NCBI GenBank assembly: GCA_024683455.1
Contig: JAIKYE010000021.1
Span: forward strand, 1-64,000
Origin: Bacteroidaceae bacterium
GTDB taxonomy: Bacteria > Bacteroidota > Bacteroidia > Bacteroidales > Bacteroidaceae
Direction: 5' to 3'
Length of the DNA: 64,000 nt
This document shows positions 6,209 through 50,182 of the stretch, piece by piece (the first letter of the stretch is position 1; each line of letters starts with the position of its first letter). The translations under genes were made by a program, and so were the position numbers. The notes beneath the pieces are model-generated. The model saw only the letters and a list, made by a program, of their open reading frames with translations, had not been told where the DNA came from and did not search any database.

Positions 6209-6462
6209 TATTTTCCTTTGTTAAAGAAGGGCCAATTTTGTTTTGGGGCTCGCCCCTATTAGTTATTCCCTGCTTCAAAGATAATCGTTTAATTATTTAC
6301 TGACTTAATAAATCAATATTTTTTATTCTTAACTCATTTAATTGTAATATGCACCTTACAAAAACGAAGAATTTCGCATAATTAATAATGCTTTTATTAT
6401 GTGAGCGGTTTAACAATAAACGTTAAATAATTGTAGGACAAGGTGGTTTTTGAGACTTTTTT

Positions 6463-6493
6463 TTTGTTTTTCTTTCATTTAATTGTACTTTTA
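6463..6493 (+). promoter_or_regulatory. Promoter of the six-hairpin glycosidase gene
   Basis: TTTG at 6463-6466, 19 bp, TActTTTa at 6486-6493. It predicts a transcription start near 6500 and a leader of about 90 nt before the ATG at 6593, which rules out the upstream in-frame ATG at 6443. Confidence 0.55.
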
Positions 6494-6592
6494 CGGCTCG
6501 AAAAGGGTATTCAGACAAAGCTGCAAGTCAATTTACTCTACAAGAACTCCCAGGAAGAACATATACATAATCATTACATAATATACTATAGC

Positions 6593-8581
6593 ATGAAAAT
6601 GAATATCAAACCTCTGTTATTGTTGAGTGCGGTTATAGCATGCTTTTCTATAAAAGCTGCTGAGATGGAAAAACCGTTTTGGTCTATAAATCCAGAAGGT
6701 GGAATTACATGGACTAATGATGGCCATGTACATGCTGATCATGTAGAAATGGCGGGAAAGAAGATGGCGGTTGTATTGCATTATGGCATTAATGGCACGG
6801 GACGTTTCACCTGTGAACGCCATTTGGTATTCCCGATGCTTCGCACTATTCCCAATGATACACATGGCAGTTTTATCCGCTACATTAACTGGGACCCATT
6901 AGAGAGTGTACTTATAGGCCAAAGCCGACTTATCGATCGTAAAGAGCAAGTTGAATCTATTTCACTGAATGGGCTAATGACAGTTCAAAGTAAGTGGGGT
7001 AACATAGGTGTTAGACGAACGCTAAGCCCTTCGACTACCCTACCTGCGTTGGTAGAGCAATATGAACTGACCAACCTGAGCGACCGCCCGGTGACCATCA
7101 GTATAGAACCCACAGAACATCGTCTGACCAGTGATGCTAAAAAAGGCGTGGATGGCACTTATGTGGTAGAATCCAGACTTTATGACACGGGGACCTTTCA
7201 GTTAAAACCCAAAGAGAGCAAAATCTTTTCAGCTGTAATCAGTGCCCGCAGGGAGAGAGAGCAATCTCTTTTGTGCAATGTGACAGCAGAGATTGCTGCA
7301 CGTAAGGAACTGGTAGCTAGGTGGCAGGAGAATCTGATATTAGAATCCCCAGACAAAGTGCTGGACCGTATGTTCGCCTTCTCTAAGATACGTGCCTGCG
7401 AGAGTATCTACGAAACGAAGAACGGTCCCATGCATGGACCTGGCGGGGAACGTTACTATGCTGCTATATGGGCTAACGACCAGGCCGAATATGCCAACCC
7501 GTTCTTCCCCTTTATCGGGGATCCCTATGCCAACGCGTCAGCCATGAATTCGTGGAATATGTTTGCAGCATGGATGAACGATGAATGGAAGGCAATCCCC
7601 AGCAGTATTATTGCAGAGGGTACTGATTACTGGAATGGTGCTGGCGATCGTGGCGATGCAGCTATGATAGCCTATGGAGCTTCACGCTATGCCCTGGCCA
7701 GGGGAAATCGCCAAGAAGCCCAACACCTTTGGCCCCTCATTCAATGGACATTGGAATATTGTCACAGACAGCTAAACGAAGCAGGTGTGGTTTGCTCCGA
7801 TAAAGACGAGTTAGAGGGACGTTTTCCCAGCGGTAATGCCAACCTTTGCACCTCATCTTTATACTATGATGCTCTGCTCTCTGCTGCATACTTGGCACGC
7901 GACCTAAAGCAGCCTTCTTCTGTAGTCAAGAGTTATGAAAAGCAAGCACGTGAGCTTAGAGCAGCCATGGATAAGTTCTTTCATGCAGAGGTAGAGGGTT
8001 TTGATACCTATCGCTACTACGAAGGTAATAACGTGCTGCGTTCTTGGATTTGTATCCCACTGACCGTGGGTATCTTTGAGCGTGCCAAGGGAACCATAGA
8101 TGCTTTGTATTCGCCCCGTCTCTGGACCAAGGACGGTATGTTGACGCAAGCAGGCAGCGAGACATTCTGGGATCGCTCTACCCTTTATGCCTTGCGTGGT
8201 GCACTGATGGCAGGTGATACAGAACGTACGTTGGGCTTCTTGCAGTATTATTCTAATACGCGTCTGTTAGGCAATCATGTTCCTTATGCTATTGAGGCAT
8301 GGCCCGAGGGAAATCAACGTCATCTCTCTGCCGAGAGTGCTCTGTATGCCCGTATTATTACAGAAGGCCTGTTTGGCATTCGTCCTACCGGTCTGCATAG
8401 TTTCACTGTCTCACCCCGATTGCCCAAAGATTGGCCAGAAATGAGTTTGAAACACATTCGTATCTGTGGTGATGATTTCGACTTACGTGTTTACCGTAAC
8501 AAGAACCAGCAAGTACGCGTGCAGTTGATAAAAGAACGGAAAATAATTAAAGAGGCGGGTTGCCCAGCCTCTTTCCGTTAG
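6593..8581 (+). CDS. Secreted six-hairpin glycosidase-like protein
   Basis: 662 residues from MKMNIKPLLLLSAVIACFSIKAAE, a good signal peptide. The promoter at 6463-6493 supports this start over the longer frame. An N-terminal beta-sandwich (to about 240) precedes an (alpha/alpha)6-type helical catalytic region with WANDQAEYANPFFPFIGD, IIAEGTDYWNGAGDRGDAAM, CSDKDELEGRFPSGNANLCTSS and EAWPEGNQRHLSAESALYAR. A small C-terminal beta domain closes it. The shape fits six-hairpin glycosidases (GH63/78/95-like clans), but I cannot name the family or substrate. It is probably periplasmic or exported. The last codons fold into the hairpin at 8549-8574. Confidence 0.7.
   Translation: MKMNIKPLLLLSAVIACFSIKAAEMEKPFWSINPEGGITWTNDGHVHADHVEMAGKKMAVVLHYGINGTGRFTCERHLVFPMLRTIPNDTHGSFIRYINWDPLESVLIGQSRLIDRKEQVESISLNGLMTVQSKWGNIGVRRTLSPSTTLPALVEQYELTNLSDRPVTISIEPTEHRLTSDAKKGVDGTYVVESRLYDTGTFQLKPKESKIFSAVISARREREQSLLCNVTAEIAARKELVARWQENLILESPDKVLDRMFAFSKIRACESIYETKNGPMHGPGGERYYAAIWANDQAEYANPFFPFIGDPYANASAMNSWNMFAAWMNDEWKAIPSSIIAEGTDYWNGAGDRGDAAMIAYGASRYALARGNRQEAQHLWPLIQWTLEYCHRQLNEAGVVCSDKDELEGRFPSGNANLCTSSLYYDALLSAAYLARDLKQPSSVVKSYEKQARELRAAMDKFFHAEVEGFDTYRYYEGNNVLRSWICIPLTVGIFERAKGTIDALYSPRLWTKDGMLTQAGSETFWDRSTLYALRGALMAGDTERTLGFLQYYSNTRLLGNHVPYAIEAWPEGNQRHLSAESALYARIITEGLFGIRPTGLHSFTVSPRLPKDWPEMSLKHIRICGDDFDLRVYRNKNQQVRVQLIKERKIIKEAGCPASFR
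8549..8574. terminator. Hairpin inside the 3' end of the glycosidase gene
   Basis: AAAGAGGC (8549-8556) pairs with GCCTCTTT (8567-8574). On the minus strand it is followed by AATTATTTT, so it can end the convergent nucleotidase operon. It sits within the last codons of the plus-strand gene. Confidence 0.5.
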
Positions 8582-10969: not shown

Positions 10970-13213
10970 ATGAAACAAATCCTATCAGTACTTGTGCTTG
11001 CATGCACAGTTTCTCTTCAATCTATTTCACAGAATATTTTTATCGAGAATGCAAAATTCCGCGTAGGAGATGATGTATCATGGGCTGGTGTCAATGTAGA
11101 TGAAAGCTCATGGCAAGAAATCAGTAACACATCCACCTGGACCTCACAGGGAATCAAATGCGAGAACGGTTTTGGTTGGTATCGCTATCATGTAACTATC
11201 CCCAAGAGTTTGATAGACAAGTCCGACCTTAAAGAGATGGTGGATTTTAATATGGGTAAGATAGATGATGCAGATGAGGTCTATCTGAATGGTAAACTTA
11301 TAGGTAAGACGGGTCGATTCCCCTCTGACCCCAAGGGGTATCAGAGTCTGTGGAGCACACTACGCAGGTACAGCGTAAAAATCAATAGTGGACTGGTCAA
11401 ATGGGACGCTGACAATGTAATAGCTGTACGTGTTTACAATGCAGGTGATCCAGGCGGCATGTTCCAAGGTCCTGTATGCGTACGCGTACCTAATACCATT
11501 GATAACTTGAGCATCAGCATCAAAGAAAACAGCCTCACTCCCAACTCCTCTGCCGTGGGCAAAGGGAACGCCATTTGTTCGCTCAATAGCAAAATGGATG
11601 CCACAAAGAGCGGTGTGTTCTCTGTTCAGGTCCAGGATCCTGAGTCTGGCAAGATTCTAACAGAGAAGACCCAGAAAGTTTCTGTGAATGCCAAGAAGAA
11701 CCATTCTATTAGCTTGCCTTATGACAATCATCAGATGGTACGTATCATTGCCACCTTTACAGAAAGCAAGACGGGTCTTAGTACTACGGCACAATATATT
11801 CCCAAGTACATCCTTACTCCTGCCGCGCCTGCTGAGCCCAGATTCAACACAACTCCTCTCTATGGTGTTCGTCCTGGCTCTCCCATCCACTTCCGCTTTG
11901 GCGTGAGCGGTGAGAAGCCTATGACATTCTCTTCTGACGATATGCCAAAGGGACTTGCCCTGAACCCTGAAAATGGTGCTCTTAGCGGTAAGTTGGAGAA
12001 ACCAGGGTCATATACCTTTACTGTGAAAGCTAAAAATGCCAAGGGTGAACAGACACAGAAGTTTACCATCCGTTGTGGCAGTAAGATTGGGCTTACGCCT
12101 CCTATGGGTTGGAACAGTTGGAATTGCTGGGGCTTGAGCGTAACACAGGATAAAGTGGTAAGCAGCGCTAAGGCTCTTATAGAGAAAGGTTTGGCAGACT
12201 ATGGCTATTGCTACATGAATATAGATGATGGATGGGAAGCACCTGCGCGTAACGTCGACGGCACTATTGCTGTAAATGAGAAGTTCCCCAGCATGAAGGA
12301 ACTGGGTGACTGGCTGCATGCAGAGGGTTTGAAGTTTGGTATCTACTCTTCTCCTGGCGATCTCACCTGTGGTGGCTATCTGGGTTCTATTGATCATGAA
12401 TTGCAGGATGCCGAGAGTTACAATAGTTGGGGAGTTGACTATCTGAAGTATGACTGGTGCGGTTATGGTCGCAAACATGCTACTGAGCCAGATAACAGAA
12501 CGGTTGCCAGCTATGTACGCCCATACCTGCTGATGGAGCGTTGTCTGCGCCAACAACCTCGTGACATCTTCTATAGCCTTTGCCAATATGGTATGGCCGA
12601 CGTATGGAAGTGGGGACATGCTGTAGATGCTAACTCATGGCGTACAACAGGTGATATCACCGATACTTGGGAAAGCCTCTATGATATTGGTTTTGCCCGT
12701 CAGCCTGAGCTCTACCCCTATGCTGAACCCGGTCATTGGAACGACCCCGATATGCTGATTGTTGGAAAGGTAGGTTGGAGTAATAATCTGCGTGACAGTC
12801 GCCTTACTCCTGATGAGCAGTACACCCACATTAGTCTGTGGACATTGTTGGCAAGCAACATGCTTATTGGTTGTGATATAGCCCAAATGGATGATTTTAC
12901 CATCAATCTGCTTTGTAACCACGAGGTGAATGCTGTCAATCAGGATATACTGGGTAAGCAGGCACAGCGTGTAGTTTTGGATGGCGACATTCAAATCTGG
13001 AGCCGTCCCTTGAGTGACGGCTCATATGCAGTAGGTCTCTTTAATGTTGGCCTGAAAGATGCTCGTGTAGATTTCAAGAAGTATTTCGAGGAGATGGGCA
13101 TAGGTACTCTGAAGAGCGTACGCGACTTATGGCGTCAGCAAGATCTGAGTACAACGGATGTTAATTACTTTATTCCTACACATGGCGTGAAGTATCTGAA
13201 GGTCAAGTATTAA
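10970..13213 (+). CDS. Secreted alpha-galactosidase, glycoside hydrolase family 27
   Basis: 747 residues with a signal peptide (MKQILSVLVLACTVSLQSIS). An N-terminal jelly-roll domain (about 20-175) is followed by an Ig-like domain of the He_PIG type (about 285-370) and a GH27 TIM barrel from TPPMGWNSWNCWG (about 379). Catalytic residues are visible: nucleophile Asp495 in YLKYDWCGYG and acid/base Asp562 in WRTTGDITD. GHWNDPDML and the C-terminal beta domain with DGSYAVGLFN are also typical. GH27 enzymes remove terminal alpha-galactose (or alpha-GalNAc in some members) from plant and host glycans. It is probably periplasmic or surface-exposed; a GH97 candidate of similar specificity is encoded at 16887. 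Confidence 0.92.
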   Translation: MKQILSVLVLACTVSLQSISQNIFIENAKFRVGDDVSWAGVNVDESSWQEISNTSTWTSQGIKCENGFGWYRYHVTIPKSLIDKSDLKEMVDFNMGKIDDADEVYLNGKLIGKTGRFPSDPKGYQSLWSTLRRYSVKINSGLVKWDADNVIAVRVYNAGDPGGMFQGPVCVRVPNTIDNLSISIKENSLTPNSSAVGKGNAICSLNSKMDATKSGVFSVQVQDPESGKILTEKTQKVSVNAKKNHSISLPYDNHQMVRIIATFTESKTGLSTTAQYIPKYILTPAAPAEPRFNTTPLYGVRPGSPIHFRFGVSGEKPMTFSSDDMPKGLALNPENGALSGKLEKPGSYTFTVKAKNAKGEQTQKFTIRCGSKIGLTPPMGWNSWNCWGLSVTQDKVVSSAKALIEKGLADYGYCYMNIDDGWEAPARNVDGTIAVNEKFPSMKELGDWLHAEGLKFGIYSSPGDLTCGGYLGSIDHELQDAESYNSWGVDYLKYDWCGYGRKHATEPDNRTVASYVRPYLLMERCLRQQPRDIFYSLCQYGMADVWKWGHAVDANSWRTTGDITDTWESLYDIGFARQPELYPYAEPGHWNDPDMLIVGKVGWSNNLRDSRLTPDEQYTHISLWTLLASNMLIGCDIAQMDDFTINLLCNHEVNAVNQDILGKQAQRVVLDGDIQIWSRPLSDGSYAVGLFNVGLKDARVDFKKYFEEMGIGTLKSVRDLWRQQDLSTTDVNYFIPTHGVKYLKVKY

Positions 13214-13258
13214 AAGCCCCCCCTACCCCTCCTCCCCCCCAAATGGGAGGTGGGGCTT
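13214..13258. repeat. C-rich palindromic element after the GH27 gene
   Basis: AAGCCCC at the left and GGGGCTT at the right enclose a CCTCC run and GGGAGG. It forms a long imperfect hairpin directly after the GH27 stop, and can act as a terminator. The layout resembles the element at 4354-4398. Confidence 0.6.
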
Positions 13259-13293
13259 GTTAGAGAAAAACAAGAAAATTTTTGTTGATTTAG

Positions 13294-13324
13294 TTTCCAG
13301 TTTCGCCAAAAAGTTATACCTTTG
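13294..13324 (+). promoter_or_regulatory. Promoter of tRNA-Leu
   Basis: TTTc at 13294-13297, 19 bp, TAccTTTG at 13317-13324, about 20 bp before the tRNA. Confidence 0.6.
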
Positions 13325-13343
13325 CGCCGTCTTAACCAAGAAT

Positions 13344-13425
13344 GCGCCTGTGGTGGAATTGGTAGACACGCTAGACTTAGGATCTAGTGCCGCGAGGCGT
13401 GTAAGTTCGAGTCTTATCAGGCGTA
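13344..13425 (+). tRNA. tRNA-Leu (anticodon TAG)
   Basis: A class II tRNA with acceptor arms GCGCCTG and CAGGCGT. The D-loop has TGGTAGAC, and the anticodon arm is CTAGA-CTTAGGA-TCTAG with anticodon TAG. The variable arm is long and GTTCGAGTC forms the T-arm. The CCA end is not encoded. A small reading frame across it is an artefact. Confidence 0.93.
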
Positions 13426-13430
13426 CACAA

Positions 13431-13466
13431 AAAGAGACCGCATAGATTCTTGCGGTCTCTTTTTTT
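13431..13466 (+). terminator. Terminator of tRNA-Leu
   Basis: A perfect 12-bp stem, AAAGAGACCGCA (13431-13442) and TGCGGTCTCTTT (13451-13462), then a T-run. Confidence 0.85.
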
Positions 13467-13539
13467 ATCAATTTAGAATGCCTCCCCAAAAGCCCTGAGT
13501 AAACTCGATTCACAAAATGAGCTTATAGGGCAAACATAT

Positions 13540-16500
13540 CTAGTATATTACTTTTTTGCCATTGATAATGTTAACACCTTTCTGTGGCTTTGAGAGTTTC
13601 TGGCCAGCTAAATTGTAAACTGAATGTTGATTGTTCAATGTTGAATGTTCAATGGCATCTATTCCTGTCATCAACTCGCCAGAAATGCATTTATCCAAAA
13701 GCACCTTCATCCAGTGACCGCCTACAACAGATCGTCCAATAAAGGCTACGTAGTTTCCACTGTCTGTGTAGAACCAGTCGGACAGAGGAACACGTGACGT
13801 TGTTTCATTGGCATACTTGTAAAGTCGGTCCATGTGGGTAGTGAACTGTGCCTGAGTACCTAAGCAAGCAGTCCAGGAGATCCAGTCAGACTTAGTATAT
13901 ACTGATCGATTGTCCAAAGGCAGTCCATATGTTTTGAGTTGGCCTGCATAATAAAGCATCTCCTGTTTGTAAACAGCATCTGGGAAAAGTTTTGTCTGCC
14001 ATACCTTATCCCATACCATATTATATTTCTGACTCCAGGTGCCTGATTTATCAAAGGCCAACTTATAATGTGTGCCGTCTTTTGCCATCTGTACCCATTC
14101 TGTAGCCATCTCCTGTGCCTTCCCGAAGTAATAGTTGTAACTATCCATATCTCCCTTTTGTTTGCACATCAGAGAAAAACCGGTTATACCCATGATAGCC
14201 TTAAGAGACAGGTTGGCGTTATGTGCCAGATGCCCGGCAAAGTCATCGGTACATAGCTGATTCTCTGGGTCAAGACCATTCTCCACCAGATAGTCAGTCC
14301 ATTTTTTGAGTGTATTCCAATACTTATTAGCCCATGTTAAATCACCGTCTATAAGTGAAATGGCTGCCGCCAGAACAACGATATTTCCGGATTCCTCTAT
14401 AGGCATATTACCTGCAAAACCACCACTGGAATCTGGGAAACGGATGGAATAAACCTGGTTGTTGGCATGTGGATACGTACCAAGGTCATGTGCTGCGAAA
14501 TCAAACCCCCATCGGTCGCTCTCGCAGTAATCAAGGATTGATGTACACATACCTTTCATAAGATCTGTATTATATATAAGGAATAAGGGTGCGGATGGAT
14601 AGGTCAGATCCACGGTGTTTACACATCCGTTAGAGTTGTTTTCCTTAGAGAAGAAAAGCAGATTTCCTTTTTTGTCTTGAAAAATCTTATGTGCTGCGAT
14701 AACATGACGATAGCAGCCAGAAAGTAACTCAGCGTATTTGGTATTTCCGGCATTTAAGCCATCGTCATATATTTCTTTGTCCTGAGCCTGGCAGTCAGTC
14801 ATAATCTGGTCATATCGGTCGCGCAACTCCTCAAATGCTGCGAAGATAGTCTTACCGTTGCGTGCCCAATAACCTTTGTAATCAAAATCCATATAACGAA
14901 TATCCTTTACCTCGTCATATCCAATCATCATATAAGAACTGGCCTGCGTGACTTTCCCCATATCGTTGGAGAATGCCAATAATGGCATGTCGGCATCCTC
15001 TGAACTTGTTATGGTTGCAGAAGAAGCCTCGGGAAGTTTGCCGGTTGCGACAAAAGTATTTGAAACTTCTGCTTGGCTGCCAATGCTTATGGCTCCGTTT
15101 ATCTCTGGGATATAGAGATACCCCCAGTCGATACAAATCATATCACCTGCCTTGCCCAGTACATTCTGTGTTTTTGCCCCCGACTTAATATAGCGAATGC
15201 CGTTTTGCTCTGTGATGGAGGATATAGTGGGCTGCATGTTGTTGTTGACTGTAAGTTCTGGTGAAGTGGCAAAATAGAACTGAACATCATGCTCTTCACC
15301 ATCATTAGATGCAACTTGATATGAAATGAAGTTAATGGGTGTGGACATAAGTTCAACATCCTTCATGAGCATAGGTGCCGTAAAGACCACATCCAATGTA
15401 ACTGGTCCGCAGGTGAACTTGTAATAGGTGTTGGTTGCCAGCACGTGACGGTTGGTCTGTTCTGCAACTTGCTCGCCGGTAATGTTATAGTACAGGCCTA
15501 TGTCGGCCAAGGCGCCGCCTGTAGTGTTATGCACGTGATATGCTATAATGTTCTCGCCTTCATGTAATACGGCTTTGTCGTCATTTGTCAGTTGGTAATC
15601 AACGTTCTTTACCCAAGTCTCGCCTGTAGAGAAGATTTTGCGTCCGTTGATGTAGCCTTCACAAACATCGTCATGCGAATAGATAATGTGCAGGTCGCGT
15701 TGTAAATCCTCTGCTGTGAGGTTGACACGGCGGCGGATATAAACGTTGGAACCCTGAGCTGACCATGGCGTATTAACATAAGGCTCGCCGGTAGATCCGA
15801 AAGCTCCAGATTGAGTTTGCCATGCGGATCCTGTATCATCATAGCCTTCTGTTGTCCAAGTAGTGCCGGAAAGCGTGGCTGTACGGACACGTGCATCCCA
15901 CGGGCCTTCATCGGCCATAGAAGCTATAGATTGCATGCCCGGATGAAATCCAAGCATATTACGGAAAAGACCCACATCGGCTAAAGCGCCACCACGTGTA
16001 TTGGCAACATGGAAGGCAATGACATTGTCTCCTGCTACCAAGGCATCGCGTGAGCTACCTTGCAGATGTACCCTAACATTCTGTCGCCAGGTGTCTTTTC
16101 CTTCTGCCAGCTTAACACCGTTGATATACAGCTCGAAATTATCATCATGAGAATAGACAATCCACAGATCGGACTTTAAATCTTCCTCTGTAAGGGTTAC
16201 GTGCCGACGAATATAGTATTCTGAGATGTCGGTCCAATCGGTTGTGACACCGTCATATTCGTTCATAGAACCAAAAGCTCCATATCTTGTTGTCCATCCG
16301 CTCTCGCTGGCATCCTTCTCGTACCAGTTGGAGGCTACACCCGAACGCTTGATTTTTGCTGCCCAGCGTCCTTTGCTCCCCATTGGTGCAATGGCCTCCA
16401 GAAGAACATCTTTTTGCGTTCCCATGAAACGATAGCTCTGTCCGTCAACGCGTAGGATTCCATCCATAGCTTTTACCGCACCAGTCCAATGTCTGGTGGT

Positions 16501-16674
16501 TCCGCCTGTCAACTTGTTGTTGGGTGACCAGAAAGAAATGTAGGGATCGTTGGTAATAAGGGGATTTGATGGCAGACGCAATTTGGTCTGCTGATAAGGT
16601 GTAAAGTAATCTGTTTGGGCATGCATGGCTATAGATGCCAGCATGGCAATCAATAAAGTTAAAGGCTTGTTCAT
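13540..16674 (-). CDS. Secreted glutaminase-like DUF4965 protein with inserted tandem jelly-roll domains
   Basis: 1044 residues from MNKPLTLLIAMLASIAMHAQ. A promoter just upstream (16711-16741) excludes the longer frame. The frame parts typical of the GtaA-like family are present: an N-terminal DUF4964-type segment (SNPLITNDPYISFWS, RHWTGAVKAM), DUF5127 (from about 408) and DUF4965/DUF1793 six-hairpin blocks (NVYSIRFPDSSGG-like region, EESGNIVVLAAAI, CTDDFAGHLAHNANLSLKAI, WISWTACLG, VGGHWMKVL). Two copies of a roughly 125-residue jelly-roll (about 117-240 and 272-398) are inserted after the first segment. Each has YIRR-x-V-x-LT, YSHDD and NTxGGALADxGL. The protein ends in the VYNLAGQK / NGKKV tail. 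Real activity, glutaminase or glycosidase, is unknown. Confidence 0.82.
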   Translation of the reverse strand: MNKPLTLLIAMLASIAMHAQTDYFTPYQQTKLRLPSNPLITNDPYISFWSPNNKLTGGTTRHWTGAVKAMDGILRVDGQSYRFMGTQKDVLLEAIAPMGSKGRWAAKIKRSGVASNWYEKDASESGWTTRYGAFGSMNEYDGVTTDWTDISEYYIRRHVTLTEEDLKSDLWIVYSHDDNFELYINGVKLAEGKDTWRQNVRVHLQGSSRDALVAGDNVIAFHVANTRGGALADVGLFRNMLGFHPGMQSIASMADEGPWDARVRTATLSGTTWTTEGYDDTGSAWQTQSGAFGSTGEPYVNTPWSAQGSNVYIRRRVNLTAEDLQRDLHIIYSHDDVCEGYINGRKIFSTGETWVKNVDYQLTNDDKAVLHEGENIIAYHVHNTTGGALADIGLYYNITGEQVAEQTNRHVLATNTYYKFTCGPVTLDVVFTAPMLMKDVELMSTPINFISYQVASNDGEEHDVQFYFATSPELTVNNNMQPTISSITEQNGIRYIKSGAKTQNVLGKAGDMICIDWGYLYIPEINGAISIGSQAEVSNTFVATGKLPEASSATITSSEDADMPLLAFSNDMGKVTQASSYMMIGYDEVKDIRYMDFDYKGYWARNGKTIFAAFEELRDRYDQIMTDCQAQDKEIYDDGLNAGNTKYAELLSGCYRHVIAAHKIFQDKKGNLLFFSKENNSNGCVNTVDLTYPSAPLFLIYNTDLMKGMCTSILDYCESDRWGFDFAAHDLGTYPHANNQVYSIRFPDSSGGFAGNMPIEESGNIVVLAAAISLIDGDLTWANKYWNTLKKWTDYLVENGLDPENQLCTDDFAGHLAHNANLSLKAIMGITGFSLMCKQKGDMDSYNYYFGKAQEMATEWVQMAKDGTHYKLAFDKSGTWSQKYNMVWDKVWQTKLFPDAVYKQEMLYYAGQLKTYGLPLDNRSVYTKSDWISWTACLGTQAQFTTHMDRLYKYANETTSRVPLSDWFYTDSGNYVAFIGRSVVGGHWMKVLLDKCISGELMTGIDAIEHSTLNNQHSVYNLAGQKLSKPQKGVNIINGKKVIY

Positions 16675-16710
16675 TTGGTTAATTTGAATATTAATGTTAG
16701 TTTTACGCTG

Positions 16711-16741
16711 CGAAATTACATATTTATGTTCAAAACTCAAA
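16711..16741 (-). promoter_or_regulatory. Promoter of the DUF4965 protein gene
   Basis: Minus strand: TTTG (16741-16738), 19 bp, TAatTTCG (16718-16711). It gives a leader of about 30 nt to the ATG at 16674. Confidence 0.65.
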
Positions 16742-16843
16742 ATATCATCTTCCCAAATGGAAGTAAATATGGTAATTTTCAGGATTTCTGTCGATTTGTT
16801 TACATAAACAACCCAAAAACTACCACAATCCATTTATTATTTC

Positions 16844-16851
16844 TATCTTTG
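16844..16851 (+). promoter_or_regulatory. -7 element before the GH97 gene
   Basis: TAtcTTTG, about 35 bp before the ATG at 16887. No clear -33 element is visible. Confidence 0.5.
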
Positions 16852-16886
16852 CGGCATACTAAACGCAAAATAACTTATATTTACAC

Positions 16887-18833
16887 ATGAACATTATGAA
16901 AAACCTGACAGCAGCGGCAATTCTTTTTGCTGTCACCTCTCTAGTAGGACATGCCGCACAGGTAAAAGAGATTGTTTCTCCCAATGGTACATTGCATGTA
17001 CAACTCCAACAAAGTCCCTTAGGATGGACCGTTACCAAGAATGGTACAACCCTTTATACCATCAAGGGCGTAAATATGTTGATAAACGGTAAGAATTACG
17101 CAGGTACGACACCTTTCAAAAGCGTAAAGACAACCTCTGCTAAAGAGACCATCAAACCCGTTGTTCCCATTAAGTTCAGCACTGTAGAAAGTTCCTATAC
17201 ACAGGCAACTCTCTCTTACGGCAACTATGCTGTGGAGATGCGTGTGATGGATAATGCCGTTGCTTATCGTTTCGTAACCAAGATTAAGGGAAACGTTGAG
17301 GTTCAGGAAGATAACTTTACCTTTGTTCCTACCGAAGGTTATGTAGCTCACCGACAGACCACTGGTAACTTTAACACCTCATACGAGGAGTCATACAGAC
17401 ACGAGACTTTGGAGCAGTGGAACCAGAGCGACCGTAAGCTATCTACTATCCCCTGTCTGCTTTCTGGTCCCAACGACAGCCAGTTGCTGATGGGTGAGGC
17501 CGATGTAGATGACTATCCTCGTTTGTTCTTGCAGCCTACTGCAGAAGGTATTGAAGCTACATACCCCAAAGCTCCTATCAAATGGGAGCCCAGAGGTGAC
17601 CGTAGCGAGACCATTACAGAAGGTAACTTTATTGCTAAGACAGCAGGTACCCGCTCATTCCCTTGGCGTTATGTTGCTTGTACAGACAGTAAGGGTATCG
17701 TAGAGCAAACTGTCACCTTGCAGCTGTCCCGTAAACCTGCACTGACAGATACCAGTTGGATTAAGCCTGGTCAGGTAAGCTGGGAATGGTGGAACGGTGC
17801 AGCTCCTTTCGGTCCCGATGTAGACTTCGTATCCGGCTGTAATTACGAGACTTACGCCTATTTTGCAGATTTTGCAGCTAAGTATGGCGTTGAGTATATT
17901 CTATTGGACGAGGGTTGGGCAAAGGATACCAGAGATCCTTACACTGCCAATGACGACATGCGTCTGAAAGAACTAATCCAGTATTGCAAGAGCAAGGGTG
18001 TTGGTGTTATCATCTGGTTGCCTTGGTTGACAGTTGAGAAGAACTGGGATCTCTTCAAGACTTATGCTGAATGGGGTGTAGCCGGTGTAAAGATTGACTT
18101 TATGGACCATGCCGATCAGTGGATGGTGAACTTCTACAAGCGTGTAGTATCTGAGGCTGCTAAATATAAACTGTTGGTTGACCTGCACGGATCATTCACT
18201 CCTACCGGTTTGGAATATGAATATCCCAACTTCCTCTCTTATGAAGGTATCCGTGGTTTGGAGCAGATGGGTAGTTGCCGTCCAGAGAACACCACCTATC
18301 TGCCTTTCATCCGTAATGCAGTAGGTCCTGCCGACTTTACTCCTGGCGGCATGAACAACATGCAGCCTGATCGTTACCATGCCAGTCGTCCCAACAGCGG
18401 TGCAATGGGAACACGTTGTTTCCAGATGGCACTCTACGTAGTACTGGAGAGTGGTATCCAGATGCTGGCTGACAACCCAACACGTTATTATCAGAACGAT
18501 GATTGTACACGCTACATAGCCTCAGTTCCTACCACATGGGACGAGACCCGTTGCTTGGCTGCAGAGGCAGGAAAGTACGTAATCACTGCCAAGCGTAAAG
18601 GCAACAAGTGGTTCATTGGCGGTATCTGCAATGGTGATGAGGATTCTCGTACTTTCAGTCTGAAACTTGATTTCTTGGGCGCTGGCAATCATACACTTAC
18701 AGCTTACAAGGATGGTGTAAATGCCAACTGGCAGGCTATGCACTACAACAAGGAGCAGCGTCAGGTTAGCGCTACAAGCACTCTCGACATCAAGATGATG
18801 AAGAATGGCGGCTATGCTGCTGTTATAGAGTAA
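16887..18833 (+). CDS. Secreted glycoside hydrolase family 97, retaining (alpha-galactosidase-type)
   Basis: 648 residues with a signal peptide (NLTAAAILFAVTSLVGHAAQ); translation may instead begin at Met4 (16896). The N-terminal beta-super-sandwich (about 25-280) starts with VKEIVSPNGTLHV and is followed by the GH97 barrel: SWEWWNGAAPFGPDVDF, YILLDEGWAKD, VGVIIWLPWLTVEKN, GVAGVKIDFMDHADQ, LLVDLHGSFTPTGLE, NFLSYEGIRGLE. Asp404 in KIDFMD occupies the place of the nucleophile of retaining GH97 enzymes such as the B. thetaiotaomicron alpha-galactosidase; inverting SusB-type enzymes use glutamates elsewhere. That makes alpha-galactosidase more likely than alpha-glucosidase, as inference. It is probably co-transcribed with the glycerophosphodiesterase 10 bp downstream. 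Confidence 0.9.
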   Translation: MNIMKNLTAAAILFAVTSLVGHAAQVKEIVSPNGTLHVQLQQSPLGWTVTKNGTTLYTIKGVNMLINGKNYAGTTPFKSVKTTSAKETIKPVVPIKFSTVESSYTQATLSYGNYAVEMRVMDNAVAYRFVTKIKGNVEVQEDNFTFVPTEGYVAHRQTTGNFNTSYEESYRHETLEQWNQSDRKLSTIPCLLSGPNDSQLLMGEADVDDYPRLFLQPTAEGIEATYPKAPIKWEPRGDRSETITEGNFIAKTAGTRSFPWRYVACTDSKGIVEQTVTLQLSRKPALTDTSWIKPGQVSWEWWNGAAPFGPDVDFVSGCNYETYAYFADFAAKYGVEYILLDEGWAKDTRDPYTANDDMRLKELIQYCKSKGVGVIIWLPWLTVEKNWDLFKTYAEWGVAGVKIDFMDHADQWMVNFYKRVVSEAAKYKLLVDLHGSFTPTGLEYEYPNFLSYEGIRGLEQMGSCRPENTTYLPFIRNAVGPADFTPGGMNNMQPDRYHASRPNSGAMGTRCFQMALYVVLESGIQMLADNPTRYYQNDDCTRYIASVPTTWDETRCLAAEAGKYVITAKRKGNKWFIGGICNGDEDSRTFSLKLDFLGAGNHTLTAYKDGVNANWQAMHYNKEQRQVSATSTLDIKMMKNGGYAAVIE

Positions 18834-45955: not shown

Positions 45956-47827
45956 TTATTCTACAGCATGTTTTACTCTAGAACCATACCAGACGTTACG
46001 CAAGGTGTTCAGACGCTCTTTTATCTCCCTGTCAGATAAACCATGATCAACACGCTTGCCATTAAGATGGAGATTGGATGAGTGTACCACCTGACTCAAG
46101 GTATCACCATCAACAACTGGTAATACTGCATAAGACTGGCGCGAACCAGCAACGCTGGGATTAATGGCCATAACATCTTGATATCTAGAGTTGGGTGTAG
46201 TCTTATGACGTCCGCCAGCAACCAAACCACCGGCATACTGACCTGTCACATTGCCTGAACTGTAGCATCCTTCCATAACAAAGGGGGCTCGTATCTTACC
46301 TACCAAACCACCAGCATAACTATTGACGCTATTGACATCTACAGAAGAATAGCTCTTGTTTAGGATGGATTTGCTTCCTACGTTACCAACGAGGCCGCCG
46401 GCGTAACCCTGACAGGTTACACGACCAGTTGCATAGCAATGCTCTATGGTAGATACATCGGGGTAGGCAGAATGTCCCAAATAGCCTGCTACCGCACCTG
46501 CACCATTTCCTGTACAGAAGATGTTGACATTCTCAAAACCTACATTCCGACATGCCCCGCACAGCACACCAAAGAAGCTACCATAATAGCAGGTACGTGA
46601 AGTGGTAAGATTACGGATGACATGTCCTTTGCCATCAAGTGTTACCCATAGAGAGTATTCGTCAGCCCTGTCATTAAGGGGAATCCACTCTATTCCTTTA
46701 AGATCGATATCACTGATTAGAGCAAAATACGTCATCTTATAGGGTGTGAGAGCCGACTTCATGTTACACATCTGGCGGGTGTTTCCAATAAGATAAGGAT
46801 TCTCCTTGCTACCATCGCCACCCGAGAACTTCGGAGCTTCATTGGCTGGCTTGAAACTAGCTGTCTCACATTTGGGATCTATCTCCACTTGATAAAGTCC
46901 TGCTTTAAGTCCCTGATTCACATTCAGCTGAATGGTATGACTACCATCACGGCCACTTTCCAACTGTTCCAACTCGGCATAAACAGAGGTGTTGATTGTA
47001 TTCTTACAGTAAGTCTCCTGCGCCAGTCTGACTTCTTCCTCTGTACGAGTCTTGCAGTACGTGTTACCTGTAACCGTATTGTAAACAAGTTCGTCACCAG
47101 ACTCCATGCGTACGACCTTACCTGTCTTATTGTCTGTAAACTCCACAATTCCTTTGTCCAAAGAAAGGAGATCCTTACGACTTCCCTTTTCGCTGACCAA
47201 ATAGAATTCTGTTCCAAGAACACGCACTTGTTCCTTTTCTGTAGAAATGACAAAAGGATGACTTGCATCTGAGGTAACACGGAAATAGGCCGAGCCTTGG
47301 AACTTTATGGAACGACGGCCACGTACAAAGTCATTCGTAGAATAAGAAAGCTCTGAGTTCTCCTTGAGCATTACCTGTGTTCCATCGGGCAACTGTAGCG
47401 TTGAGGTTTCACCGGCAACCGTAGAGACAGCCATCTCACCGTCATTAAGGCTGCTTAGGTTATAGTACATGATAGTTGTACAAGCAAGTAAAATAGGGAA
47501 GCAGATAGCAGCTGCCCACAACATAGCATTGCGGAAAAATGCATGGTGGCGCTGCATCCATGTAGCATTAGGAACAACGGATTGATTCAGCACACGTCTC
47601 TTGAAACGCATAAATGCAGCCTCTCCATCATAGCGTTTCTCTATGATGGATGAACCTATCCATGCTTCCTTCATCCGAACAAATTCCTGAGCGTTTTCCT
47701 CAGATGCTTGCACCCATTGAGCAAGGGCTTCTGCACCGTCTGGCGAAATTTCTCCGGTAAGGTAATCAATGATATTAAGTGCTATATCTTGGTTATCTTT
47801 CATCCTCCTATTTTTGTATCTCTTCAT
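45956..47827 (-). CDS. FecR-family anti-sigma factor fused to a GLUG-motif domain
   Basis: 623 residues, about twice the length of ordinary FecR proteins. A cytoplasmic N-terminal domain (1-90: IIDYLTGEISPDGAEALAQWVQ) precedes a transmembrane segment (101-122). The FecR domain (about 135-235) has VAGETSTLQLPDGTQVMLKENSELSY, AYFRVTSDASHPFVI and VRVLGTEFYL. The usual C-terminal receptor-contact domain is not recognisable. Instead, from about 335 there is KFSGGDGSKENPYLIGN, then WVTLDGKGHVIRNLT and three GLUG-type turns (YAGGLVGNVG, YAGGLVGKI, YAGGLVAGG), as in extracellular adhesins. It may start at Met9. It follows its ECF sigma gene by 29 bp. Ligand sensing by the GLUG part is an inference. 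Confidence 0.82.
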   Translation of the reverse strand: MKRYKNRRMKDNQDIALNIIDYLTGEISPDGAEALAQWVQASEENAQEFVRMKEAWIGSSIIEKRYDGEAAFMRFKRRVLNQSVVPNATWMQRHHAFFRNAMLWAAAICFPILLACTTIMYYNLSSLNDGEMAVSTVAGETSTLQLPDGTQVMLKENSELSYSTNDFVRGRRSIKFQGSAYFRVTSDASHPFVISTEKEQVRVLGTEFYLVSEKGSRKDLLSLDKGIVEFTDNKTGKVVRMESGDELVYNTVTGNTYCKTRTEEEVRLAQETYCKNTINTSVYAELEQLESGRDGSHTIQLNVNQGLKAGLYQVEIDPKCETASFKPANEAPKFSGGDGSKENPYLIGNTRQMCNMKSALTPYKMTYFALISDIDLKGIEWIPLNDRADEYSLWVTLDGKGHVIRNLTTSRTCYYGSFFGVLCGACRNVGFENVNIFCTGNGAGAVAGYLGHSAYPDVSTIEHCYATGRVTCQGYAGGLVGNVGSKSILNKSYSSVDVNSVNSYAGGLVGKIRAPFVMEGCYSSGNVTGQYAGGLVAGGRHKTTPNSRYQDVMAINPSVAGSRQSYAVLPVVDGDTLSQVVHSSNLHLNGKRVDHGLSDREIKERLNTLRNVWYGSRVKHAVE

Positions 47828-47856
47828 TTATATGACAATATTTTTACCTTCTTGTG

Positions 47857-48450
47857 TTAAATCAATACCATAAAAAATGTTAAAATGGTCAAATATTTAG
47901 AGAAACGCTGCTCTATTAGTTTTAAAGCTTGTTGTATTCGGACCTTTACAGTATTAGCACTGACACCATCCTCGGCCCCTATCTGGCGATAAGTCATCTC
48001 GCGGAAACGGCTCTTAATGAACGTCGTCTTAACAGGTTCGGGGAGATTCTCTATGCAATCACGCATCAATCCCTCGAGTTCATTGTCCAATAGTTTTCCC
48101 TGTGGTGTGACATAATCAACCCCAGAAAGCACATCGTGCGTATCCTGTTCGCCTAACGTACTAAACGCCTGCACATAGCGTGCCGTTTTGGAATTGAGTA
48201 GATTGAGACAATGATTACGGGTACTCATCATAAGGTAGCTACGGAGATTGGAATGAATGACAACCTCACTGCGCACCTCATACAGATGACTAATAACATC
48301 TGAAACAGCAGACTGAGCCAAAAATTCGTCGGAAAGGATACTCTCTGCCAGGATACACATAGGTCCATAGTATGTTCTGAACACATACCTATATGCATCC
48401 TCAGAGCCTTCCATAAGGCCGCGAATTATTGATTTCTCGTCTGCCTGCAT
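47857..48450 (-). CDS. ECF-type RNA polymerase sigma factor (Bacteroidota group)
   Basis: 197 residues. Region 2 (about 10-85: YRYVFRTYYGPMCILAESIL, VISHLYEVRSEVVIHSNLRSYLMMSTRNHCLNLL) and region 4 (about 125-180: LEGLMRDCIENLPEPVKTTFIKSRFREMTYRQIGAEDGVSANTVKVRIQQALKLI) are clear. The C-terminal YLTILTFFMVLI is hydrophobic. It is paired with the FecR fusion downstream and its start overlaps the GH43 stop (TAATG), an unusual order in which the enzyme comes first. It likely directs transcription of targets outside this window as no SusC/D genes are present. Confidence 0.92.
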   Translation of the reverse strand: MQADEKSIIRGLMEGSEDAYRYVFRTYYGPMCILAESILSDEFLAQSAVSDVISHLYEVRSEVVIHSNLRSYLMMSTRNHCLNLLNSKTARYVQAFSTLGEQDTHDVLSGVDYVTPQGKLLDNELEGLMRDCIENLPEPVKTTFIKSRFREMTYRQIGAEDGVSANTVKVRIQQALKLIEQRFSKYLTILTFFMVLI

Positions 48451-49430
48451 TATTCTGGTTTACCTCCATTTACATAAGGCCATCCTTTCTTGTCCCATTG
48501 AATACGAGACATAAGCATAGAACGTTGTTCCGGACGGAGATTCTCTCGAACGTGACAATGGTAAAAAATGTACTCATTACCATCCGGAGCCGTAAAAATC
48601 TCGCCACAATGACCTGGGCCATAGAAATTATCTCCTTCATCACTATGGAGCACAGGCGTAGCATATCCCTCGGACATAGGCTTGCCTTCACGACTTACAA
48701 ATACACCTGTAAGTTTCTTACTACGCCCCACCTGCAACTGATAAGTATGATTGCCATAGAAACCCGAACTTACAAACAAATACCAATATCCGTCGTGCCA
48801 ATGAAGATACGAACCTTCAAAAACCTTTGAACGATCGGGACATTGACGCACCGTAAGACCGGCTACATGTTCGTATTTTGCTCCTTCCTTAAGGGAAAGT
48901 CCGTCTGCATTTAACTCTACACGATAAATTCCTCCTACAGAACCAAAGAAAAGCCAAACCTTTCCTGTCTTAGGATCTGTAACAACCTCGGGGTCGATGG
49001 TATCTTCAATACCTGTTTCTTTTCCACACGTAACGATACCTTTGAATTGGAATTGGCAAGGGGTTCCCTCTTGCAATACTGCAATGTTACTGTCTTCTGC
49101 ACTATTGTACAAGGTTAAATACATGAGTCGCTTACCATTAACGCTAGTGACATCTGGAGCCCAGAAATTACGTGAAATTTTAGAAATAGTCTCCCAAGAG
49201 TTCGCATCAATGGGAGAAATATCAGACATCTGCCAGCTAAAGAAATCTTCGCTGACAATGCTTTTTCGCGGGTTAGTAGCAATACAGAAATATCGTCCAT
49301 CGTCTGCCTGCCATATTGTCGGGTCAGGCCAATTAGGAGACCAAACGGGATTCTTTATCTGCTGAGCACCGGCCAAAAGTGACATCAAAAAAGCAGAGAA
49401 AAGAATAATCCCCGGACAAAATCGATTCAT
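48450..49430 (-). CDS. Secreted glycoside hydrolase family 43 (arabinanase-like)
   Basis: 326 residues from MNRFCPGIILFSAFLMSLLAGAQ. A promoter -7 element at 49464-49471 excludes the outer start, while Met at 49454 remains possible. Single-domain GH43 propeller: base Asp in NWPDPTIWQ, Asp in EDTIDPEVVTD, acid Glu in KVFEGSYLHWHDGYWYL. The absence of a C-terminal sandwich and its length resemble endo-arabinanases and related exo-enzymes. It is the first gene of an operon with the ECF sigma factor and the FecR-GLUG protein, so its expression may be tied to that signalling pair. Confidence 0.9.
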   Translation of the reverse strand: MNRFCPGIILFSAFLMSLLAGAQQIKNPVWSPNWPDPTIWQADDGRYFCIATNPRKSIVSEDFFSWQMSDISPIDANSWETISKISRNFWAPDVTSVNGKRLMYLTLYNSAEDSNIAVLQEGTPCQFQFKGIVTCGKETGIEDTIDPEVVTDPKTGKVWLFFGSVGGIYRVELNADGLSLKEGAKYEHVAGLTVRQCPDRSKVFEGSYLHWHDGYWYLFVSSGFYGNHTYQLQVGRSKKLTGVFVSREGKPMSEGYATPVLHSDEGDNFYGPGHCGEIFTAPDGNEYIFYHCHVRENLRPEQRSMLMSRIQWDKKGWPYVNGGKPE

Positions 49431-49585: not shown

Positions 49586-50182
49586 ATGGCAGAAACAAGA
49601 AAAATCCAGCGAGCACTGGTATCCGTATTTCACAAGGACGGATTAGAGGAGATTCTGCGCACCCTGAATGCGCAAGGTGTAGAACTGTTGAGCACAGGCG
49701 GTACTCAGACATTTATTGAGAGTCTGGGTATTCCCTGTCAGAAAGTTGAAGACGTTACTACGTACCCCAGCATCTTGGGAGGCAGAGTAAAGACTCTTCA
49801 TCCCAAAGTGTTCGGTGGCATTCTGGGTCGTCGCGAGTTGGAGAGCGACCAACAACAGATGAAACAATATGAGATTCCTGCTATCGACTTGGTCATCGTT
49901 GACCTTTATCCCTTCGAGGACACCGTTGCCAGCGGTGCCAGTGCTGCAGACATCATAGAGAAAATAGATATAGGCGGCATCAGCCTTATCCGTGCTGCTG
50001 CCAAGAACTTCCGCGATGTTATCATCGTACCTTCTAAGGCTGAGTACAAGCCATTACTGGACTTGCTGCAAAAGCAGGGCGCACAAAGCGAAATAGAAGA
50101 CCGCAAATGGTTTGCTACCCGCGCTTTTGGTGTAAGCAGCCATTACGACACAGCTATCCACGGTTGGTTCGAAAAAGAGTAA
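49586..50182 (+). CDS. IMP cyclohydrolase (PurH N-terminal domain only)
   Basis: 198 residues. It matches the MGS-like IMP cyclohydrolase half of PurH: RALVSVFHKDGLEEIL, LLSTGGTQTFIE, VTTYPSILGGRVKTLHPKVFGGIL, IDLVIVDLYPFEDTV, KIDIGGISLIRAAAKNFRDV. It catalyses ring closure of FAICAR to IMP, the last step of purine synthesis. The AICAR transformylase domain (about 300 residues) is missing; the frame stops cleanly after WFEKE and the next 60 bp lead into mreB, so it is not a frameshift remnant. The transformylase must be encoded elsewhere. Confidence 0.88.
   Translation: MAETRKIQRALVSVFHKDGLEEILRTLNAQGVELLSTGGTQTFIESLGIPCQKVEDVTTYPSILGGRVKTLHPKVFGGILGRRELESDQQQMKQYEIPAIDLVIVDLYPFEDTVASGASAADIIEKIDIGGISLIRAAAKNFRDVIIVPSKAEYKPLLDLLQKQGAQSEIEDRKWFATRAFGVSSHYDTAIHGWFEKE

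What the first reader, a model, noticed from the sequence alone, without database searches (positions are those of the whole stretch)
45956..49430. FecR anti-sigma factor with a GLUG adhesin-like C-terminus in a GH43-sigma-FecR operon
FecR proteins normally end in a domain that contacts a TonB-dependent receptor. Here the FecR domain is followed by about 290 residues with GLUG turns (AGGLVG three times) of the kind found on surface adhesins, and no SusC/D pair is nearby. The enzyme gene comes first, with TAATG coupling to the sigma gene. This could be a receptor-free sigma/anti-sigma switch in which the periplasmic GLUG part senses a glycan or wall fragment directly.
Basis: partly seen in the sequence, partly recalled or inferred. 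Interest (0 to 1): 0.75.

Follow-up and report, generated by a model that had tools for sequence, protein, structure and literature searches.

The report
Anti-sigma factor carrying an enzyme's module
In a Bacteroidales-type genome, a membrane switch protein of a kind that normally takes its signal from an outer-membrane receptor lacks the receptor-docking part and carries instead a module also found on sugar-degrading enzymes, so it may sense plant sugars directly.

Summary
Window 45956-49430 (minus strand) is a GH43-ECF sigma-FecR operon. The 623-aa FecR ends in a GLUG region and has no FecR_C/DUF4974 domain. It is not a one-off: 46 listed database proteins share the architecture (33-99% identity), and 10 of 139 genus genomes carry it, 9 of them as the same GH43-sigma-FecR set near purH. 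The tenth lies in a GH31-sigma-FecR/GLUG-epimerase-GH43-GH2 cluster. The FecR parts group apart from ordinary FecRs (support 98, quick tree), consistent with one fusion. A profile that finds the docking domain in 26 of 26 ordinary FecRs finds it in none of the 46. No SusC/D match lies in the window or nine related loci. The GLUG module's nearest relatives are not adhesins but modules of putatively exported arabinanase-like GH43 enzymes and of large surface-type proteins, mostly of the same genus. In other Bacteroidales, GLUG genes often lie beside SusC/SusD, some in sigma-FecR operons. Best reading: a receptor-free FecR whose periplasmic GLUG solenoid binds a glycan (perhaps arabinan-derived) and so frees sigma, like clostridial RsgI by convergence. 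Ligand, regulon and proteolysis are untested; one carrier has a strong STN receptor; no structure prediction could be run. New variant of a known kind.

The parts
48450..49430 (-). GH43 enzyme, 326 aa from the second ATG, putative signal peptide (judged by eye), closest to endo-1,5-alpha-L-arabinanases
   Evidence: Pfam GH43 1.2e-38; PDB arabinanases, best 1.5e-23; Asp36, the IDP Asp and the FEG Glu fall opposite DP, IDP and IEA of the arabinanases. The choice of ATG follows the -7 element.
47857..48450 (-). ECF sigma factor, 197 aa (FecI-like)
   Evidence: TIGR02985 Sig70_bacteroi1 9.6e-32, below its curated cut-off; Sigma70_r4_2 3.3e-10; 85-89% identical in the 8 named orthologous loci
45956..47827 (-). 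FecR-GLUG anti-sigma factor, 623 aa
   Evidence: Pfam; 46 listed proteins with FecR and a GLUG-profile match; a single Kyte-Doolittle peak
47456..47542 (-). transmembrane segment, residues about 96-124
   Evidence: the only 19-residue windows above 1.6 start at residues 96-106
47180..47428 (-). FecR domain (residues 134-216), predicted periplasmic
   Evidence: PF04773; PDB 4m0n/4m0h putative anti-sigma factors
46829..47053 (-). faster-evolving linker (residues 259-333), mostly absent from the P0041-type relatives
   Evidence: alignment; divergence
46229..46828 (-). GLUG module (residues 334-533), shared with GH43 proteins
   Evidence: 3n6z 1.5e-27 and 6.3e-52 by profile; 40% identity over 334-615 to a GH43 protein on own-genome contig C17
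49464..49471 (-). TAACTTTG, a match to the Bacteroidota -7 element TAnnTTTG (motif recalled, from no call)
   Evidence: TAnnTTTG kept in 9 of 9 aligned upstream regions, 8 as TAACTTTG and L038 as TATCTTTG

Best explanation
A FecI/FecR-type sigma/anti-sigma pair in which the anti-sigma factor lacks the C-terminal domain (FecR_C/DUF4974) that docks to the N-terminal STN domain of a TonB receptor, and carries instead a GLUG solenoid shared with arabinanase-like GH43 proteins of the same genus. SHOWN: architecture, absence of the docking domain, conserved gene set, shared module, grouping of the FecR parts. INFERRED: the N-terminus holds the ECF sigma at the membrane; oligosaccharides in the periplasm (perhaps arabinan-derived, made or trimmed by the operon's own predicted periplasmic GH43) bind the GLUG solenoid; binding changes the FecR domain and exposes it to a periplasmic protease and then to an RseP-type protease; the freed sigma then drives glycan-utilisation genes. 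It would work like clostridial RsgI but is built on FecR.
For: Docking domain absent: hhalign against FecRs with FecR_C stops at residue 282; an STN/FecR_C profile hits 26 of 26 FecRs that carry PF16344 and 0 of 46 fusions at E<1. Conserved gene set: GH43, sigma and FecR-GLUG in 8 of 8 named orthologous loci plus the window; 10 of 139 genus genomes have the fusion, and in each it was the only FecR match. Divergent L043 lies in a GH31-sigma-FecR/GLUG-epimerase-GH43-GH2 cluster beside another GH43. No SusC/D match in the window or 9 related loci. Same module on a GH43 protein of the same genome at 40% identity; both GH43s are closest to endo-arabinanases. GH43/GLUG-type frames in 8 of 10 carriers against 35 of 129 non-carriers (hand count; Fisher p 0.0013). 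FecR parts one group, 98. GLUG divergence as low as FecR's. Of 70 other GLUG loci, 26 had SusC, 28 SusD and 9 sigma, FecR-like, SusC and SusD together. M50 (RseP-type) protease in 10 of 10 carriers. In E. coli RseP cleaves FecR (PMC8144685, abstract).
Against: No ligand, regulon or proteolysis data. The conserved promoter element looks housekeeping in 9 of 9, so no sign that sigma drives its own operon. STN-like matches were found in 5 of 10 carriers: one strong (G218, 1.1e-19), four weak (9e-9 to 3e-4). In G218 the fusion is the only FecR match in the held genome, so that receptor could be its partner; it lies at a contig start, so its own FecR may be missing. Genomes are incomplete (72-90%). 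My Pfam STN searches were insensitive: they missed five genomes with STN-like receptors. The GLUG parts need not be one group (one clade in 8% of bootstrap trees, AU p 0.448). The carrier/enzyme association is not corrected for kinship. The last 83 residues evolve faster than the GLUG part, and at least 11 of the 46 proteins are shorter. No binding role is proven for any GLUG domain in what I read.
Confidence: 0.55

Rival explanations
1. The protein still takes its signal from a TonB receptor encoded elsewhere, through the retained first periplasmic (FecR) subdomain, and the GLUG module only positions it or modulates the contact.
For: In PupR both periplasmic subdomains bind the receptor's signalling domain (PMC9249621, passages). 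One carrier (G218) has a strong STN receptor match and no other FecR match, and four have weak STN matches.
Against: FecR_C not found in 46 of 46. No STN match at E<=1e-3 in 5 of 10 carriers including the window's genome. In three carriers (G152, G232, G294) the weak STN frames sit next to FecR_C-bearing frames of their own (only L166 was read).
Confidence: 0.17
2. The GLUG module binds a protein or enzyme partner (for example the operon's GH43 or an exported enzyme) rather than a glycan; the sensor reads enzyme traffic or occupancy.
For: GLUG modules occur on enzymes and beside SusC/D, which fits a shared docking module as well as a sugar-binding one; no GLUG ligand was named in the passages read.
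Against: The paper in which 3n6z is top structural hit for one cluster says that its model resembles carbohydrate-binding pectate-lyase-type domains, though with possible catalysis (PMC9210967, passage).
Confidence: 0.15
3. Envelope or wall-stress sensor: the GLUG part senses peptidoglycan or envelope state, and the GH43 is incidental.
For: The operon is divergent from purH-mreB-mreC-PBP2 in the window and in 8 of 8 named loci; an M15 peptidase gene lies about 1.1 kb beyond the fusion in the window.
Against: The divergent L043 system lies in a multi-enzyme sugar cluster instead; the nearest GLUG relatives are on GH43 proteins. The M15 gene was found in 1 of 8 named loci (L037, 5 kb from the fusion; only about 5-8 kb was held on that side).
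Confidence: 0.08

Closest known systems
FecI/FecR cell-surface signalling (E. coli FecR, PupR; Bacteroides PUL ECF-sigma/anti-sigma pairs)
   Same: ECF sigma beside it, DUF4880-like N-terminus (below cut-off), single TM, FecR domain
   Different: No FecR_C/DUF4974 docking domain, GLUG module instead, no SusC/D match at the locus
RsgI/SigI of Clostridium thermocellum
   Same: Anti-sigma ectodomain with a carbohydrate-binding or enzyme module that senses substrate (PMC12203970, passages); here proposed only
   Different: Different anti-sigma family and sigma class; no RsgI match among Pfam or NCBIfam hits; Gram-negative periplasm rather than outside the wall; no binding shown
[quoted passage not shown]
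   Same: Bacteroidota anti-sigma factors with a sensing part of their own, in an operon with an ECF sigma (PMC13088901, abstract and passages)
   Different: Dma has a disordered tether and a C-terminal beta-barrel; here a FecR domain plus a homologue of the solenoid 3n6z
GLUG genes in Bacteroidales sigma-FecR-SusC/D operons (L055, L058)
   Same: GLUG gene inside a sigma-FecR operon
   Different: There the GLUG protein is a separate putative lipoprotein; in L055 FecR keeps FecR_C and SusC keeps STN
RsiV, an anti-sigma factor that binds lysozyme directly
   Same: Direct ligand sensing by an anti-sigma factor (PMC4183432, search listing only)
   Different: Different ligand and, from recall, a different protein family

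Membership tests
FecR anti-sigma factors | FecR domain (PF04773) | tested here: met
   1.6e-14, above cut-off
FecR anti-sigma factors | single TM with N-terminal sigma-binding region | tested here: met
   one hydropathy peak; hhalign aligns residues 3-282 with ordinary FecRs; DUF4880 0.019, below cut-off. Sigma binding itself was not tested.
FecR anti-sigma factors | adjacent ECF sigma gene | tested here: met
   window, 8 of 8 named loci and L043
Receptor-linked FecR (cell-surface signalling) | C-terminal FecR_C/DUF4974 domain | tested here: not met
Receptor-linked FecR (cell-surface signalling) | partner TonB receptor with STN domain | tested here: inconclusive
   no SusC/D match at the locus; no STN match in 5 of 10 carriers, one strong and four weak in the others; incomplete genomes
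Polysaccharide utilisation locus | SusC/SusD pair | tested here: not met
   no match in the window or L035-L043
RsgI | RsgI N-terminal and autocleaving periplasmic domains | tested here: not met
   no such family among the Pfam (E<=1) or NCBIfam matches
RsgI-like mechanism | ectodomain binds polysaccharide | not testable with these tools
   needs binding assays
Dma anti-sigma factors | C-terminal outer-membrane beta-barrel | tested here: not met
   by sequence only: residues 334-533 are homologous to the solenoid 3n6z; no structure prediction was possible
GLUG solenoid domains | GLUG repeats, homology to 3n6z | tested here: met
   Pfam Glug 9.3e-7; 3n6z 6.3e-52 by profile

The most novel reading that the evidence does not exclude
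The GLUG solenoid of this genus is an undescribed plant-glycan (arabinan or pectic side-chain) binding module used three ways: on exported GH43 enzymes, on large surface proteins, and as the input domain of an anti-sigma factor. The switch reads the same sugar its enzymes attack, and FecR became a one-component, receptor-free glycan sensor: RsgI logic reinvented in Bacteroidota. It is the fused counterpart of an arrangement still seen in Bacteroides, where GLUG protein, FecR and SusC/D are separate parts of one operon.
Probability: 0.35. Interest if true: 0.75.

Novelty: new variant of a known kind. Interest (0 to 1): 0.6.

Why it matters
FecR systems are understood as taking their cue from an occupied receptor. 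A natural FecR without the docking domain, with its own candidate sensor and a conserved enzyme partner, makes direct glycan sensing testable on one purified protein. It would also give a handle on what GLUG domains, found here on enzymes, large surface-type proteins and beside SusC/D, recognise.

Tried and rejected
Assembly or annotation artefact: rejected; 46 listed proteins and 10 of 139 genus genomes carry the fusion, and 9 of 9 aligned genes had no internal stop. Hidden DUF4974 in the linker or C-terminus: rejected. The weak CymA porin match (214-296, below cut-off) was not followed up. Defence function: no PADLOC match for the three proteins.

STN searches with Pfam PF07660 first suggested that 1 of 139 genomes has an STN receptor. 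That was misleading: five genomes with ordinary FecRs have SusC-type genes with STN-like N-termini that the model missed. I replaced it with a 17-row STN alignment (receptor N-termini only; FecR_C rows found were left out), which found 5 of 5 of these, five of its rows being from them.

TAATG coupling as a conserved trait: rejected, 4 of 9. Autoregulation by a conserved ECF promoter: none seen by eye. One origin judged from the GLUG half alone: inconclusive.

Tree rows were picked by hand: 78 of 282 GLUG hits, many of them duplicates, 50 of those; 21 of 46 fusions. GH43/GLUG frames (755-1061 aa) were counted by hand; GH43 was confirmed by Pfam only for the own genome's copy and L044. Of four large-protein GLUG modules in the supported group, LamG was confirmed for two (L164, the place of L045, and L165). 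One search scored only the 7996 candidates sharing most words. L035-L042 and G218, G292, G232, G294, G152, G311, G282, G229 appear to be the same genomes (equal identities; equal contig length noted for G152) and were not counted twice; likewise L043 and G288. Loci were used only in the profile scan.
Full report
WHAT IS THERE. The window lies in a 2.4-Mb, 83% complete genome in 107 contigs. On the minus strand, GH43 (48450-49430), an ECF sigma factor (47857-48450) and a 623-aa FecR protein (45956-47827) form a compact operon divergent from purH-mreB-mreC-PBP2. The FecR protein has an N-terminal part, one hydrophobic segment (about 96-124), a FecR domain (134-216), a variable linker, and a GLUG region from 334. 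The GLUG region matches the solved protein 3n6z (1.5e-27 by sequence, 6.3e-52 by profile). A paper describes 3n6z as a solenoid with repeats distantly related to GLUG (PMC4021314, passage).

THE DOCKING DOMAIN IS NOT THERE. A profile-profile comparison with 25 FecRs that carry FecR_C aligns residues 3-282 and then stops. A profile built from STN and FecR_C domains of fetched loci hits 26 of 26 FecRs that carry PF16344 and 0 of 46 FecR-GLUG proteins at E<1 (lowest 2.3). In PupR the periplasmic part has two subdomains that both bind the receptor's signalling domain (PMC9249621, passages); here the second is replaced.

IT IS A FAMILY. 46 of the 120 proteins listed have FecR and a GLUG-profile match, 33-99% identical to the window's protein. 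At least 11 of the 46 are shorter (490-552 aa); of three that I aligned, two end in a different short tail, and others may be fragments. In the genus, 15 of 139 genomes have a FecR match, one each: 10 are the fusion, and 5 are frames of 396-407 aa beside a SusC-type receptor (5 of 5), with FecR_C confirmed in the three that I scanned. Of the 10, nine are orthologous (69-79% identical, or the window's own) and one, G288/L043, is 34% identical. GH43, sigma and FecR-GLUG are present in 8 of 8 named orthologous loci, each next to purH and mreB; in 9 of 9 carrier genomes of this type the short purH frame is on the same contig within about 5 kb. In L043 the order is GH31, sigma, FecR-GLUG, aldose epimerase, GH43, GH2, with another GH43 divergent. 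A search of 399 family genomes with P0041 (E<=1e-30) listed no fusion outside the genus. The FecR portions of 21 fusions form one side of a branch against 55 ordinary FecRs (quick tree, 98).

WHERE THE MODULE IS SHARED. The same genome encodes a 1000-aa protein, GH43 then GLUG, 40% identical to the sensor's GLUG over 334-615; its N-terminus looks like a signal peptide and its C-terminal end like a type IX secretion signal (both by eye and recall, from no call). Its GH43 part and the operon's GH43 are both closest to endo-1,5-arabinanases in the PDB; NCBIfam AbnA matches are far below cut-off, so the substrate is a guess. In the quick tree, FecR-GLUG (23), GH43-GLUG (15) and four large-protein GLUG modules form one supported group (99); two more modules that I had labelled LamG (P0048, P0049, unverified) fall outside. 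GH43-GLUG is one group (100/100); whether FecR-GLUG is one is neither shown nor rejected (8% of bootstrap trees, AU p 0.448). 44 positions are at least 90% conserved in both FecR-GLUG (23) and GH43-GLUG (15). GH43-GLUG-type frames occur in 8 of 10 carriers and 35 of 129 non-carriers (hand count at E<=1e-40; p 0.0013; not corrected for kinship).

THE UNFUSED ARRANGEMENT. Of 70 further GLUG loci, 26 had SusC, 28 SusD and 9 sigma, FecR-like, SusC and SusD together. In Bacteroides acidifaciens (L055) the order is sigma, FecR with FecR_C, a GLUG putative lipoprotein, SusC with STN, SusD, and an Exo_endo_phos protein. That GLUG protein got no Pfam match at E<=0.01, but it matches the GLUG profile with 167 bits and its start is nearly the same as 3n6z's. 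So GLUG proteins already occur with FecR systems; in this genus one is part of FecR. The tree does not make the Bacteroides protein the direct source: GH43 and large-protein modules are nearer.

IS THERE A RECEPTOR? No match at the locus: no SusC/D in the window or L035-L043. With the 17-row STN alignment, 41 of 139 genus genomes have a match, including the 5 with ordinary FecRs. Of the 10 carriers, 5 (the window's genome, G282, G292, G229, G311) have none; G218 has a strong one (1.1e-19), and G232, G288, G294 and G152 have weak ones. In G218 the fusion is the only FecR match, so a partnership there is possible; the receptor gene lies at a contig start. Genomes are incomplete, so a receptor elsewhere is not excluded. 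My earlier Pfam-based searches understated STN and are not used.

MECHANISM. Inferred: glycan binding to GLUG alters the FecR domain and exposes it to proteolysis. In E. coli RseP makes the last cut of FecR (PMC8144685, abstract); a peptidase M50 match is present in 10 of 10 carriers. In eight comparisons pN of the GLUG part is 0.07-0.13 and of the FecR domain 0.07-0.15, against 0.19-0.28 in the linker and 0.18-0.24 in the last 83 residues; synonymous sites are near saturation, so ratios are rough. The conserved promoter element looks housekeeping, which would supply sensor and enzyme before induction but gives no hint of the regulon.

WHAT IS KNOWN. RsgI ectodomains with CBM, PA14 or GH modules sense polysaccharides (PMC12203970, passages). 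Dma proteins are another unusual Bacteroidota anti-sigma type (PMC13088901, abstract and passages). A Bacteroides hybrid two-component sensor binds arabino-oligosaccharides directly (PMC3243724, passages), so periplasmic arabinan sensing has precedent with another protein. For a FecR-like protein of Leptospira the authors note that no TonB receptor there has an N-terminal extension (PMC12155086, passages). A review mentions predicted GH and carbohydrate-binding domains on ECF52/53 proteins (PMC10766802, passages). No paper in the held library had both GLUG and FecR, nor FecR with carbohydrate-binding, anti-sigma and fusion; by title none of the papers listed (2 of 2; 12 of 94; 10 of 10) is on such a fusion. 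Most subscription journals are not held.

VERDICT. Real and conserved, with one grouping on the FecR side; a new variant of FecR signalling. Direct glycan sensing is the best but unproven reading.

Noticed in passing
window 49586-50182 (+): PurH is split: a 198-aa frame with the MGS domain and only the first 59 positions of the AICARFT model, 93-99% conserved in 8 of 8 named loci. A separate AICARFT match lies on another contig in 9 of 9 carrier genomes, in G292 only a piece at a contig start.
   Followed up: partly
L166 574-3204 (G152:C61): Another trimmed anti-sigma: sigma, a 191-aa TM-type protein with FecR_C but no FecR match, then a TonB-receptor-like protein with an STN-like N-terminus. 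FecR_C frames of similar size are also in G232 and G294, and below cut-off in G229 and G292.
   Followed up: partly
L036, L037, L038, L041 between GH43 and sigma: A gap of about 85-160 bases rich in short repeats (GTTTAAGAGG- or GATTATAG-like) where four other orthologues have the TAATG overlap.
   Followed up: no
P0052-P0054; L055 14482-16041: GLUG occurs with PF09992 (phosphodiester glycosidase) in three listed proteins, and an Exo_endo_phos gene sits in the Bacteroides GLUG operon.
   Followed up: no
window 10970-18833: Melibiase-type, glutaminase-A-like and GH97 genes together, with no SusC/D match in the window.
   Followed up: no
window 6443-8581 (+): 712-aa frame without any Pfam match at E<=0.001.
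   Followed up: no
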